A DNA stretch of 13,182 nt from Cellulomonas sp. (GTDB lineage: Bacteria > Actinomycetota > Actinomycetes > Actinomycetales > Cellulomonadaceae), in NCBI GenBank assembly GCA_027451305.1, contig DAIDJQ010000017.1, forward strand, positions 1 to 13,182, in the 5' to 3' direction. The notes below the pieces were generated by a model. The model ran no database searches. It was given only the letters and a program-made list of their open reading frames with translations, and was not told the origin of the DNA. Position 1 is the stretch's first letter, and each line of letters opens with the position of its first letter. The position numbers were made by a program, and so were the translations under genes. This document shows positions 5,867 through 11,369 of this stretch, one piece after another.

Positions 5867-6853
5867 TCAGGCCTCGTCCACCAGCGCGCGCGCCGTCGGC
5901 ATGTCGGTGATCAGGATGTTCACCCAGGCGCCCCGCAGCGCACCGCGGATCGCCGCCACCTTGCGCAGGCCGCCGGCCACCGCGATGCGCCGCGGCACGG
6001 CCCGCAGGGTGCCCGGCGTGATGCCGATGATCCGCTCGTCGAGGTCGCCGGTGACGGGCTGGCCGTCCGCGTCGAAGAACCGCAGGCAGACGTCACCGAC
6101 GGCGTCAGCCGCACGCAGCCGGTCCTGGTCCTCGTCGGACAGCCCGTTGCCGCTCTCGCGCAGCAACGGCGACGGCTCGAGGGCGCCGATGCCGACCAGC
6201 GCCGTGGTGAGCGCCGGCCACCGGGTGGTCACCTGCATCACGGCGGGGTCGGACATCAGGCTGCGCCGGGCCGCGGCGCTGCCGAGCAGACCCGGCGCCG
6301 GCAGGAAGATCGGCTCGGCACCGGTGGCGGCCGCCAGGCGCGTGAGCAGCCGGGTGGCGTCGACCTGGACCCGGGGGTCGCCGACACCGCCCACCAGCTG
6401 GACCACCTCGGACACCACCGGCTTGCCGCTCGGGCGCAGCGCGTCGACCGCGGCGAGCAGCGACGCGCTCCAGGACGAGATCCCGATGGTCTCGCCGCCG
6501 ATCAGAGTCGCCTCGAGGAACTCGGCCGCTGCCGCGCCCAGGGCCCGCAGGTTGCCGTCGTCGTCGCTGTCGACCACGACGGCCTCGGCGAGCCCGTAGG
6601 TCTTCTCCAGCCGCTCCTCGAGGTCGGTGTGCACCCCTGCCGGAAGCGTGACCGTGGTGCGCACGATGCCCACCTCGGCGGCACGCTTCAGCAGCCGGGA
6701 GACCCGCGGCTGGGAGATGTGCAGCTCGTCCGCGATGTCCGTCTGACGCATCTCGCGCTCGTGGTACATCCGCGCGATCTTCGCCATCAGGCGCAGCTGC
6801 TCGTCCCGGCCGATGCGGGTCCGGCTCGTCGTCCTTGCAGCGTCCGGTGCCAC
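5867..6853 (-). CDS. SorC/DeoR-type sugar-binding transcriptional regulator
   Basis: Regulator of 328 residues from the chosen start, normal for the SorC family. An N-terminal helix-turn-helix (about residues 24-68) contains MAKIARMYHE, MRQTDIADELHISQPRVSRLL and the following AEVGIVRTTV. Residues about 78-328 form the sugar-binding domain of the phosphosugar-isomerase fold, which in known members binds a phosphorylated sugar intermediate. The frame is open to a GTG at 6934, but that start lies inside the transketolase gene. The GTG at 6853, after AACGGGAAGGCC, leaves a 55-base gap and gives a normal length. It is the last gene after the kinase-isomerase-transketolase genes and is the likely controller of that operon. 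The gap upstream shares TTCCATTCA with the kinase promoter, hinting at self-regulation. Confidence 0.9.
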   Translation of the reverse strand: MAPDAARTTSRTRIGRDEQLRLMAKIARMYHEREMRQTDIADELHISQPRVSRLLKRAAEVGIVRTTVTLPAGVHTDLEERLEKTYGLAEAVVVDSDDDGNLRALGAAAAEFLEATLIGGETIGISSWSASLLAAVDALRPSGKPVVSEVVQLVGGVGDPRVQVDATRLLTRLAAATGAEPIFLPAPGLLGSAAARRSLMSDPAVMQVTTRWPALTTALVGIGALEPSPLLRESGNGLSDEDQDRLRAADAVGDVCLRFFDADGQPVTGDLDERIIGITPGTLRAVPRRIAVAGGLRKVAAIRGALRGAWVNILITDMPTARALVDEA

Positions 6854-6863
6854 GGCCTTCCCG

Positions 6864-6887
6864 TTCCATTCAGGTGTGAGCGGTGAT
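6864..6887. promoter_or_regulatory. Candidate regulator-binding site upstream of the SorC gene
   Basis: TTCCATTCA (6864-6872) followed 10 bases later by GTGAT (6883-6887) repeats the layout found downstream of the kinase promoter (11311-11319 and 11331-11335, one base further apart). It lies in the 55-base gap between transketolase and regulator. The inverted repeat is only partly kept here. Operator function is an inference from the shared words. Confidence 0.35.
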
Positions 6888-6908
6888 GCGACGGCAGCGT
6901 AGCGGTCG

Positions 6909-9807: not shown

Positions 9808-11287
9808 TGCTGTCATCTCCGATCGGTGGTGCGGGGTTGGTCACGCGCGGCTCCACGGCGAGCCCACGCGCACGGTCGATGGCGGTCCGCCAGGCCGCGC
9901 GGCGCTGCGCGCGGGTGACGGGGTCCGCGGCCGGGACGTAGTGCGCCACGCCCGACGGGGCGGTGGGCGCCGGGTCCGGCCAGCCCAGGGCGCGGCCGGC
10001 CAGGCGCGCGACGCCGAGCGCGGACAGCTCGGCGGTGGCGGACGGGGCGACGGCGACGCCGAGCGTGTCCGCCTGCAGCTGCATCAGCAGCGCGCTCGCA
10101 CTGGCCCCGCCGTCCGCGCAGAGCGACTCGGGCGCCGGTGTGCCGGCCGGGCTCATCGCCTCCACCACGTCGGCCACCTGGTGCGCGACCGCCTCGAAGG
10201 CGGCCCGTGCCACGTGCGCGGGCGTGGTGCCGGCGGACAGCCCGCTCAGCGTGCCGACCGCGTCCGCGTCCCAGTACGGGGCGCCGAGCCCGCCGAACGC
10301 GGGGACCAGCACCACACCGTCCGCATCGGGCACCTGCGCCGCCAGCCGGCCGAGCTCGGCACCGCCCTGCACGCCGAGCAGCCGGGCCGTCCAGTCGAGC
10401 GCCGCACCGGAGTACCGGATGTTCCCCTCGAGCGCGTACGTCGGCCGGTCGGTCAACCAGGCCAGCGTGGTGGCGACCCCGGTCCCCACGCCGGTGGCGT
10501 CCGGCCACGGCCGCATCACGGACGAGCCGGTGCCGTACGTCGCCTTCACGGTGCGCGGGTCGCCGGCCCCGTGCCCCAGCAGCGCCGCGTGCGAGTCCGC
10601 CAGCACCGCCAGCACCGGCACCTGCGGCAGGCCCTCGGCCCGGACCGTGCCGAACGGGCCGTCCGAGCGGACCACGCGGCCCAGCGCGCCCAGCGGGACG
10701 CCGAACAGGTCCGCGAGCTCCGCGTCCCACGCCAGGCGCTCCAGCCCGAGCAGCAGCGTGCGGGAGGCGTTGCCCGCCTCCGTGAGGTGCTCGCCGACGA
10801 GGTTCCACAGCAGCCAGGAGTCGACGGTGCCGACCGCGACGTGCGGTCCGGAGCCCGCCGCCGCCAGCAGCCAGGCCATCTTGGGCGCCGAGAACATCGG
10901 GTCCAGCGGAAGCCCGGTGCGGGCCCGGACCTGGGCCGCCCGGGGGTCCGCTGCCAGCGTGGCGCACGCCTCCGCGGTGCGGGCGTCCTGCCAGCTGAGC
11001 ACCGGCCCGAGCGGACGGCCGTCACGGCGGTCCCAGACCACCACGGACTCGCGCTGCGTGGACAGCGCGAGGCCGACGGGCGTGCCGCCGCTGCGCTCGA
11101 CGCTCTCGAGGAGGACCTGACGGACGGTGCGCCAGATGGCGTCGGGGTCCTGCTCCACCCAGCCGGGACGGGGGGTGGTCACCGGCACAGGGGCGGAGGC
11201 GACCGCACGGACGGCGCCTGCGGCGTCGACGCACACGGCCTTGGTGTTGGTCGTGCCCTGGTCGACGGCGACGAGGACCTCGGTCAC
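9800..11287 (-). CDS. FGGY-family carbohydrate kinase, glycerol-kinase-like (candidate apulose kinase)
   Basis: The 495-residue protein phosphorylates a sugar or polyol with ATP. It shows the phosphate loop DQGTTNTK (9-16), TQRESVVVW (about 77-85), LSWQDART (97-104), GTVDSWLLW (153-161), the catalytic Asp231 in LADSHAALLGHG, YGTGSS (251-256), FGGLGAPYWD (331-340) and ADGGAS near 391. The overall match is to glycerol kinase, with Arg/Glu and Trp of the glycerol pocket kept. However, DPYFS reads DPMFS and GDQQAA reads ADSHAA, so two glycerol-contacting residues (Tyr135 and Gln246 of E. coli GlpK) are replaced, arguing for another substrate. The frame is open to 11338, but the GTG at 11287 has GGGAGG just upstream and starts MTEVLVAVDQG. 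It is the first gene of the promoter-led operon and overlaps the isomerase by eight bases. Confidence 0.92.
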   Translation of the reverse strand: MTEVLVAVDQGTTNTKAVCVDAAGAVRAVASAPVPVTTPRPGWVEQDPDAIWRTVRQVLLESVERSGGTPVGLALSTQRESVVVWDRRDGRPLGPVLSWQDARTAEACATLAADPRAAQVRARTGLPLDPMFSAPKMAWLLAAAGSGPHVAVGTVDSWLLWNLVGEHLTEAGNASRTLLLGLERLAWDAELADLFGVPLGALGRVVRSDGPFGTVRAEGLPQVPVLAVLADSHAALLGHGAGDPRTVKATYGTGSSVMRPWPDATGVGTGVATTLAWLTDRPTYALEGNIRYSGAALDWTARLLGVQGGAELGRLAAQVPDADGVVLVPAFGGLGAPYWDADAVGTLSGLSAGTTPAHVARAAFEAVAHQVADVVEAMSPAGTPAPESLCADGGASASALLMQLQADTLGVAVAPSATAELSALGVARLAGRALGWPDPAPTAPSGVAHYVPAADPVTRAQRRAAWRTAIDRARGLAVEPRVTNPAPPIGDDSNE

Positions 11288-11313
11288 CGCACCTCCCGCG
11301 GGTTGCGAATTTC

Positions 11314-11339
11314 CATTCATTGGTGAATGAGTGATCACT
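11314..11339. promoter_or_regulatory. Double palindrome, likely operator of the sugar operon
   Basis: CATTCA-TTGG-TGAATG (11314-11329) is a perfect 6-bp inverted repeat and touches AGTGATCACT (11330-11339), a perfect 10-base palindrome. Both are AT-rich for this genome and sit directly downstream of the -10 box, covering the predicted transcription start. A repressor bound here would block the kinase operon; the SorC-family protein at the end of the operon is the natural candidate. Confidence 0.65.
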
Positions 11340-11369
11340 ACGGTATGGATCGAGAGGCCCGTCTGTCAA
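11340..11369 (-). promoter_or_regulatory. Sigma-70-type promoter of the kinase-isomerase-transketolase operon
   Basis: On the minus strand a perfect -35 TTGACA (11369-11364) is followed by an 18-base spacer and TACCGT (11345-11340), which fits TANNNT. The start would be near 11333, inside the adjacent palindrome, giving a leader of about 46 bases that ends with GGGAGG before the kinase GTG. This is the best promoter in the window. Confidence 0.7.

What the first reader, a model, noticed from the sequence alone, without database searches (positions are those of the whole stretch)
5867..11369. Candidate D-apiose catabolic operon in an actinobacterium
One promoter leads a tightly overlapping set: FGGY kinase, xylose-isomerase-like TIM barrel, two-subunit transketolase and SorC regulator. 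Known families: this combination is the non-oxidative transketolase route for D-apiose (isomerase, apulose kinase, apulose-4-phosphate transketolase A/B). The kinase is glycerol-kinase-like but has a changed pocket, and no aldolase is present, which removes rhamnose/fucose-type pathways. D-apiose occurs in plant cell-wall RG-II and apiin, fitting a plant-polymer degrader. The substrate is an inference; a four- or five-carbon relative remains possible.
Basis: partly seen in the sequence, partly recalled or inferred. Interest (0 to 1): 0.72.

Follow-up and report, generated by a model that had tools for sequence, protein, structure and literature searches.

The report
Actinobacterial operon for eating D-apiose
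An actinobacterium carries a set of genes that very probably lets it take up and use apiose, an unusual branched sugar from plant cell walls; the pathway is known from other bacteria, and the new detail is a ribose-type gene pair that stays attached to it in related actinobacteria.

Summary
On the minus strand lie, in order, the end of a sugar-binding protein gene, RbsK, RbsD, a promoter with a palindrome, then FGGY kinase, xylose-isomerase-fold TIM barrel, transketolase N-half, transketolase C-half and a SorC regulator, joined by short overlaps. The isomerase is 67-69% identical to Pectobacterium atrosepticum PDB 3ktc. In a genome with a 100% match to 3ktc, that gene sits with AplK, AptA, AptB, SorC and an ABC transporter that match the E. 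coli SE15 D-apiose cluster, a type reported to support growth on apiose. The kinase shares one clade with E. coli AplK, outside glycerol kinase, with two glycerol-pocket residues changed. Several relatives lie beside pectin-type glycosidases. So this is a member of the known transketolase-type D-apiose pathway. Added here: the locus also includes an apiose-type transporter and an RbsK-RbsD pair; this RbsD lineage was found only at apiose loci in the genomes searched. A promoter plus palindrome before the kinase is conserved in close relatives. Activity was not tested, and some orphan isomerases and an unresolved transketolase tree count against. New member of a known kind.

The parts
5867..6934 (-). 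SorC-family sugar-binding transcriptional regulator, last gene of the operon (start codon uncertain; 6934 is the longest reading)
   Evidence: PF04198 E 6.9e-56; 40% identical to the E. coli SE15 apiose-cluster regulator
6909..7859 (-). transketolase C-half, AptB-like
   Evidence: PF02779, PF02780; 47% to E. coli SE15 ECSF_RS02715 over 284 of 316 residues
7856..8818 (-). transketolase N-half (thiamine diphosphate domain), AptA-like
   Evidence: PF00456; 44% to E. coli SE15 ECSF_RS02710 over 265 of 320 residues; trees
8815..9807 (-). D-apiose isomerase (ApsI-like), xylose-isomerase fold; start 9807 preferred to 9816
9800..11287 (-). FGGY kinase, apulose kinase (AplK-like)
   Evidence: one clade with E. 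coli SE15 AplK, 98/96, outside GlpK; pocket residues Tyr135 to Met and Gln246 to Ser
11314..11369 (-). promoter (TTGACA, 18-base spacer, TACCGT) and operator-like palindrome CATTCA-CCAA-TGAATG (11314-11329)
   Evidence: conserved before the kinase in close relatives; shuffled control
11426..11818 (-). RbsD, D-ribose pyranase family, apiose-locus lineage
   Evidence: NF008761 123.4 bits, cut-off 93; clade 97/95 of apiose-linked RbsD
11815..12783 (-). RbsK, ribokinase-type PfkB kinase
   Evidence: TIGR02152 267.2 bits, below cut-off 299.65; ribose-site residues kept
12842..13180 (-). C-terminal end of the periplasmic sugar-binding protein of the transporter (runs off the window)
   Evidence: PF13407; 71-86% to binding proteins in ten actinobacterial isomerase loci and 37% to the E. 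coli apiose-cluster one

Best explanation
The locus is a D-apiose uptake and catabolic operon of the non-oxidative, transketolase type. An ABC transporter whose binding protein ends at the window edge brings D-apiose in. The TIM-barrel isomerase (ApsI-like) turns D-apiose into apulose. The FGGY kinase (AplK-like) makes apulose 4-phosphate. The two-subunit transketolase (AptA/AptB-like) moves the two-carbon unit to glyceraldehyde 3-phosphate, giving xylulose 5-phosphate and dihydroxyacetone phosphate, which enter central metabolism. The SorC protein senses a pathway sugar and controls the promoter before the kinase through the conserved palindrome. The RbsK-RbsD pair most likely handles D-ribose entering through the same transporter. 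Shown: gene families, orthology of isomerase and kinase, operon layout, conserved promoter/palindrome, linkage of RbsK-RbsD. Inferred: substrates, transketolase chemistry (recalled pathway knowledge), SorC binding, role of RbsK-RbsD.
For: Isomerase: 3ktc, titled Erwinia carotovora atroseptica SCRI1043. A genome with a 100% match to it over 324 residues has SorC, isomerase, AplK, AptB, AptA, permease, ATPase and binding protein in a row, its AptA 79%, AptB 71% and SorC 70% identical to E. coli SE15. PMC13001218 (passages) names ECSF_RS02700 aplK, 02710 aptA, 02715 aptB, says Pectobacterium carotovorum has apsI and Escherichia lacks it, and reports growth of cluster-carrying strains on D-apiose. 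Kinase clade and pocket: Ser for Gln246 and Met/Leu/Ala for Tyr135 in 28 of 28 operon-side kinases, Tyr and Gln in 9 of 9 GlpK-side kinases. Permeases of six actinobacterial loci plus L103 group with the E. coli apiose permease, 97/94. Of 40 loci fetched by the isomerase, 31 hold kinase, TkA and TkB, 24 of those also SorC; for 5 of the 7 loci lacking TkA, a TkA-like match of 54-65% lies on another contig of the same genome. Pectin context: Streptomyces plasmid with pectinesterase, GH28, arabinofuranosidase, GH95; Pedococcus with GH78, GH43, GH42; Parafrankia and Actinomadura with apiosidase-like genes within 3 kb.
Against: Identity to the E. coli cluster proteins is only 37-47%. Operon TkA is one group in only 2% (all rows) and 56% (two long rows left out) of bootstrap trees. 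The isomerase lies without kinase or transketolase beside it on the three Pantoea plasmids looked at, of 11 Pantoea records listed, and on a Croceibacterium plasmid next to GH65 and nucleoside-hydrolase-like genes; a TkA search of the three Pantoea plasmids gave one 34% hit and nothing in two, chromosomes not searched. Two MAGs with the isomerase have only 37-41% TkA matches. The Apiosidase family was found in 6 of 20 operon-bearing genomes, and the three copies on operon contigs score modestly and carry DUF5605, two also DUF5060. D-apiose has no pyranose form (recalled), so RbsD has no obvious job in the apiose route.
Confidence: 0.88

Rival explanations
1. Same enzyme families, different sugar: the actinobacterial operon acts on another four- or five-carbon aldose (for example D-ribose, or a branched or tetrose relative of apiose) with the same isomerase-kinase-transketolase logic.
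For: Only 37-47% identity to the E. coli cluster; RbsK and RbsD, ribose enzymes by family, are tied to the locus; the isomerase occurs elsewhere without the other genes beside it.
Against: Isomerase is 69% identical to the one in the 3ktc-matching genome, with the same partner genes; the kinase pocket change is shared with the AplK of E. coli and of that genome; the transporter clade is shared. D-ribose already has a route through RbsK in the same locus.
Confidence: 0.08
2. The RbsK-RbsD pair has been recruited into apiose use (RbsD speeding ring opening or exchange of apiofuranose forms before isomerisation; RbsK acting on a pathway sugar), rather than being a ribose side branch. This concerns the pair only and can hold together with the best explanation.
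For: Linked RbsD form one clade of 9, 97/95. In 396 genomes of the order, the 5 RbsD hits at 65% or more to the window copy all lie 3.0-7.3 kb from the isomerase, and the 28 weaker RbsD hits lie in genomes where the isomerase was not found (Fisher p 4e-6, kinship not corrected). The pair stays linked in three gene orders.
Against: RbsK keeps the ribose-site residues checked and differs from the ribose-operon copies at only two fixed columns (RbsD at four); RbsD scores over the D-ribose pyranase cut-off. The RbsK tree does not separate linked from unlinked copies (one group in 24% of bootstraps). Only 5 of 26 isomerase-bearing genomes have the linked RbsD. One family genome, G034, has the isomerase and two RbsD-family genes far from it.
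Confidence: 0.2
3. The kinase is simply a second glycerol kinase and the operon a glycerol/dihydroxyacetone or xylose unit.
For: TIGR01311 glycerol kinase matches at 407.2 bits.
Against: Below the 590.35 cut-off; 8 of the 10 genomes searched have a separate GlpK over the cut-off besides the operon kinase, and the tree separates them; the isomerase scores 71.9 against the xylose isomerase cut-off of 447.
Confidence: 0.02

Closest known systems
D-apiose non-oxidative transketolase pathway (ApsI, AplK, AptA, AptB) of Pectobacterium; Carter et al. 2018 (recalled and cited by PMC13001218; the paper itself is not held)
   Same: same isomerase, kinase, two transketolase halves, SorC regulator and ABC transporter type; isomerase 69% identical
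   Different: gene order; SorC is co-directional at the operon end; an RbsK-RbsD pair is added
E. coli SE15 / ST131 D-apiose cluster (PMC13001218; L043)
   Same: AplK, AptA, AptB and SorC counterparts; the DUF2291-ATPase-permease-binding protein set recurs in related actinobacterial loci
   Different: E. coli has two SDR oxidoreductases and no isomerase; 37-47% identity
Ribose operon rbsACBKD
   Same: RbsK and RbsD families; binding-protein type
   Different: permease and RbsD of the apiose loci form groups apart from the ribose operons examined; RbsK does not

Membership tests
D-apiose non-oxidative transketolase pathway | D-apiose isomerase of the Pectobacterium (3ktc) type | tested here: met
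D-apiose non-oxidative transketolase pathway | apulose kinase of the AplK clade | tested here: met
   28 operon-side kinases with E. coli AplK on one side of a 98/96 branch
D-apiose non-oxidative transketolase pathway | two separate transketolase subunit genes, AptA and AptB | tested here: met
   PF00456 and PF02779/PF02780 in separate overlapping genes; 44 and 47% to E. coli AptA and AptB
D-apiose non-oxidative transketolase pathway | AptA clade exclusive of other split transketolases | tested here: inconclusive
   apart from full-length transketolases 100/100, but one group in only 2% and 56% of bootstraps
D-apiose non-oxidative transketolase pathway | apiose-type ABC transporter | tested here: inconclusive
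   only the end of the binding protein is in the window; it is 71-86% identical to those of actinobacterial isomerase loci, whose permeases cluster with the E. coli apiose permease
D-apiose non-oxidative transketolase pathway | activity on D-apiose, apulose and apulose 4-phosphate | not testable with these tools
   needs assays
Glycerol kinase (TIGR01311) | score over the curated cut-off and glycerol-pocket residues kept | tested here: not met
   407.2 against 590.35 bits; Tyr135 to Met, Gln246 to Ser, though Arg83, Glu84 and Asp245 are kept (residue numbers recalled)
Xylose isomerase / L-rhamnose isomerase | score over the curated cut-off | tested here: not met
   71.9 against 447 and 70.6 against 531.35 bits
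D-ribose pyranase RbsD (NF008761) | score over the curated cut-off | tested here: met
   123.4 against 93 bits
Ribokinase (TIGR02152) | score over the curated cut-off | tested here: not met
   267.2 against 299.65 bits, though ribose-site residues are kept

The most novel reading that the evidence does not exclude
The apiose loci of these actinobacteria have taken over a ribose pyranase lineage (and a ribokinase) as working parts of apiose use: RbsD speeds opening or interchange of the apiofuranose forms released from plant material so that the isomerase, which needs the open chain, is not starved. I know of no sugar mutarotase assigned to apiose (recalled; no paper held both apiose and ribokinase).
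Probability: 0.2. Interest if true: 0.5.

Novelty: new member of a known kind. Interest (0 to 1): 0.35.

Why it matters
It extends a pathway described in Pectobacterium and Escherichia to Cellulomonas-type actinobacteria, with enough orthology to predict growth on apiose from sequence. Close relatives of the isomerase carry names such as xylose isomerase or L-rhamnose isomerase, which the evidence here argues against. The conserved promoter and palindrome give a ready regulon test, and the tied RbsK-RbsD pair poses a clear question about how ribose and apiose use are joined.

Tried and rejected
Generic promoter and terminator scan: nothing found; conservation did better. Rfam: only the tRNA. 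Phage records: no isomerase match. A first kinase tree held seven wrong-strand rows and one unrelated kinase (L039, 23% identity); it was discarded and rebuilt without L039, with the strands corrected and with L140, the Novosphingobium operon kinase, relabelled. Of 26 kinase matches, 10 are the operon kinases, 14 entered as paralogues and two fragments from G012 were left out. Loci with isomerase but no transketolase beside it were suspected of another pathway; five of the seven have a closer TkA match on another contig (in one genome as two part matches; one of the five, L032, has its contig end inside the isomerase), two only 37-41% matches. RbsK as a separate apiose clade: not supported. 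Apiosidase family as a marker: 6 of 20 genomes, 3 of them on the operon's contig, so a hint only. In the RbsD tree only copies that tblastn found at E 1e-10 entered: 9 linked with the window and 11 unlinked; the other RbsD_FucU matches (37 matches in all) dropped out. The five ribose operons compared (L115-L119) are five of the higher-scoring unlinked RbsD matches, not all. In some searches at most 10 and 5 candidates per genome were scored. The promoter pattern was written after seeing six of the loci, so its matches there are not independent. Literature: Carter et al. 2018 not held; searches for apiose with apulose/transketolase, isomerase/catabol, apulose, actinobacteri, apiose isomerase, Cellulomonas, ribokinase, Streptomyces/operon showed no paper on an actinobacterial apiose operon in the rows listed (one search listed 20 of 33, one search listed 40 of 536); the library lacks most subscription journals, so earlier description is possible. 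Passages on apiose in PMC6302742 and PMC10103415 concern RuBisCO-like routes; no such protein was among the window proteins scanned.
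Full report
Observation. The window carries, on the minus strand, a run of genes with short overlaps: FGGY kinase 9800-11287, TIM barrel 8815-9807, transketolase N-half 7856-8818, transketolase C-half 6909-7859 and SorC regulator 5867-6934. Upstream, same strand, are RbsD 11426-11818, RbsK 11815-12783 and the end of a sugar-binding protein 12842-13180. Downstream lie a tRNA-Arg (5483-5556) and a GntR gene on the plus strand and, by my reading of the ORFs without a family search, argS, lysA and homoserine dehydrogenase.

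Link to apiose. PMC13001218 (passages read) states that the E. coli D-apiose cluster (SE15, ECSF_RS02670 to 02715) includes aplK, aptA and aptB, that the Pectobacterium carotovorum cluster has apsI for a D-apiose isomerase which the Escherichia version lacks, and that cluster-carrying Escherichia strains and P. carotovorum grow on D-apiose while K-12 does not (SE15 itself is not among the strains named as grown). I fetched the SE15 cluster. The 3ktc-matching genome's AptA, AptB and SorC are 79, 71 and 70% identical to it. The window's proteins are 41 (kinase), 44 (TkA), 47 (TkB), 40 (SorC) and 37% (binding-protein end) identical; the AplK of the 3ktc-matching genome is itself only 45% identical to the E. 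coli AplK.

Kinase. A tree of 28 operon-side kinases (window, E. coli SE15 AplK and 26 others lying beside the isomerase or in its operon) and 14 paralogues puts all 28 on one side of a 98/96 branch, with nine GlpK-side kinases as neighbours at 100/98. At two glycerol-pocket positions (numbers recalled from E. coli GlpK) all 28 differ: Ser for Gln246, and Met, Leu or Ala for Tyr135; all nine GlpK-side kinases keep Tyr and Gln; Arg83, Glu84 and Asp245 are the same in both.

Transketolase. Operon TkA, with E. coli AptA, stands apart from full-length transketolases at 100/100, but a few other split transketolases are not excluded: the 31 operon rows form one group in 2% of bootstraps with all rows and 56% after leaving out two long rows. 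Of 40 loci returned by the one genome scan with the isomerase, 31 hold kinase, TkA and TkB at 35% identity or more, 24 of them also SorC; 4 hold kinase and SorC only, 2 TkA, TkB and SorC only, 2 kinase only, 1 none. For the seven without TkA, the same genomes hold a TkA match on another contig: 54-65% in five, 37-41% in two.

Surroundings in relatives. A Streptomyces plasmid (L044) has the operon among pectinesterase, GH28, beta-L-arabinofuranosidase and GH95 genes. Pedococcus has GH78 1.4 kb from TkB, then GH43, GH42, and an apiosidase-like gene about 10 kb away with arabinose genes beyond it. In Parafrankia an apiosidase-like gene ends 0.7 kb before the isomerase, with a GH2 gene 3.5 kb away; in Actinomadura one lies 2.6 kb after SorC behind a GH3 gene. 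Of 20 operon-bearing genomes searched for the Apiosidase family, 6 had it, 3 on the operon's contig. A Propionibacteriaceae MAG has GH78 beside isomerase and kinase. Against: on three Pantoea plasmids and one Croceibacterium plasmid the isomerase has no kinase or transketolase beside it.

Transporter and RbsK-RbsD. In L100, L102, L105, L106, L110 and L111 RbsK is divergent from the kinase, which is followed by ATPase, permease, binding protein, isomerase, TkA and TkB; RbsD follows RbsK except in L111, where it lies 6.7 kb off. In L100 a DUF2291 lipoprotein lies before the ATPase, as in the E. coli and Rhizobium clusters. The permeases of these six loci and L103 are 51-55% identical to the E. 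coli apiose permease and group with it (97/94), while those of five ribose operons (L115-L119) are 36-40% identical and group with E. coli RbsC at 90/80. The window's binding-protein end is 71-86% identical to those of ten actinobacterial isomerase loci, so the window's transporter is very likely of the apiose type. Linked RbsD form one clade of 9, 97/95, apart from 11 unlinked. Among 396 genomes of the order, 33 have an RbsD hit and 26 the isomerase; the five RbsD hits at 65% identity or more all lie 3.0-7.3 kb from the isomerase, and none of the other 28 is in a genome where the isomerase was found (Fisher p 4e-6, not corrected for kinship). In 121 genomes of the family, 10 have the isomerase and 29 an RbsD_FucU match; 6 have both, 5 of them linked; the sixth, G034, has two RbsD-family genes far away. 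Two of the linked genomes, G006 and G116, also have further RbsD-family copies elsewhere. Against a special role: RbsK ribose-site residues are unchanged and RbsK does not split into linked and unlinked clades. I therefore read the pair as a ribose side branch sharing the transporter, with apiose recruitment as a minority view.

Promoter and operator. TTGACA, an 18-base spacer, TACCGT and CATTCACCAATGAATG precede the window kinase (11314-11369). Among L001-L040 a strict form of the pattern occurs once each in L001, L004, L006, L007, L019 and L035, and also in L100, each time just before the kinase; six shuffles of L001-L040 gave none. A looser form adds L016, L021 and L033 before the kinase and four hits elsewhere (L005, L016, L018, L019), against 0-2 per shuffle. 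The other loci of L001-L040 have no hit, and so have the five ribose operons L115-L119. The pattern was derived from six of these loci, so the independent matches are L007 (strict) and L016, L021, L033 (loose). That SorC binds it is inference.

Verdict. The finding is right: a D-apiose operon of the known transketolase type, now with its likely transporter, its promoter and a linked ribose-type pair. It is a new member of a known kind; the substrate remains an inference from strong orthology and context.

Noticed in passing
window 11426-12783: RbsK-RbsD pair tied to the apiose locus in several actinobacterial families; this RbsD lineage was found only at apiose loci in the genomes searched.
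   Followed up: yes
L041 9010-10002, L042 8989-9981, L048 10010-11002: Pantoea plasmids carry a 71-72% identical isomerase with no kinase or transketolase beside it; use unknown.
   Followed up: partly
L047 10010-10990: Croceibacterium plasmid isomerase (63% identical) between GH65 and a nucleoside-hydrolase-like gene, without kinase or transketolase.
   Followed up: no
L026, L027, L028, L040: Kinase-isomerase-SorC clusters without transketolase genes beside them; a TkA match of 54-62% lies on another contig of the same genomes. In L040 the isomerase match covers only residues 9-57.
   Followed up: yes
L022, L037: Propionibacteriaceae MAGs with the isomerase but only 37-41% TkA matches; L022 has GH78 and a thiamine-type enzyme nearby.
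   Followed up: partly
L018 4702-5490: Gilliamella transketolase N-half match contains one in-frame TAA, perhaps a decayed gene or an assembly error.
   Followed up: no
L005 940-996: A loose promoter-palindrome match 4.4 kb before the kinase, perhaps leading other genes of that locus.
   Followed up: no
window 4678-5406 and 5483-5556: FCD-type GntR regulator and tRNA-Arg(CCG) between the operon and the ORF read as argS; no link to apiose seen.
   Followed up: no
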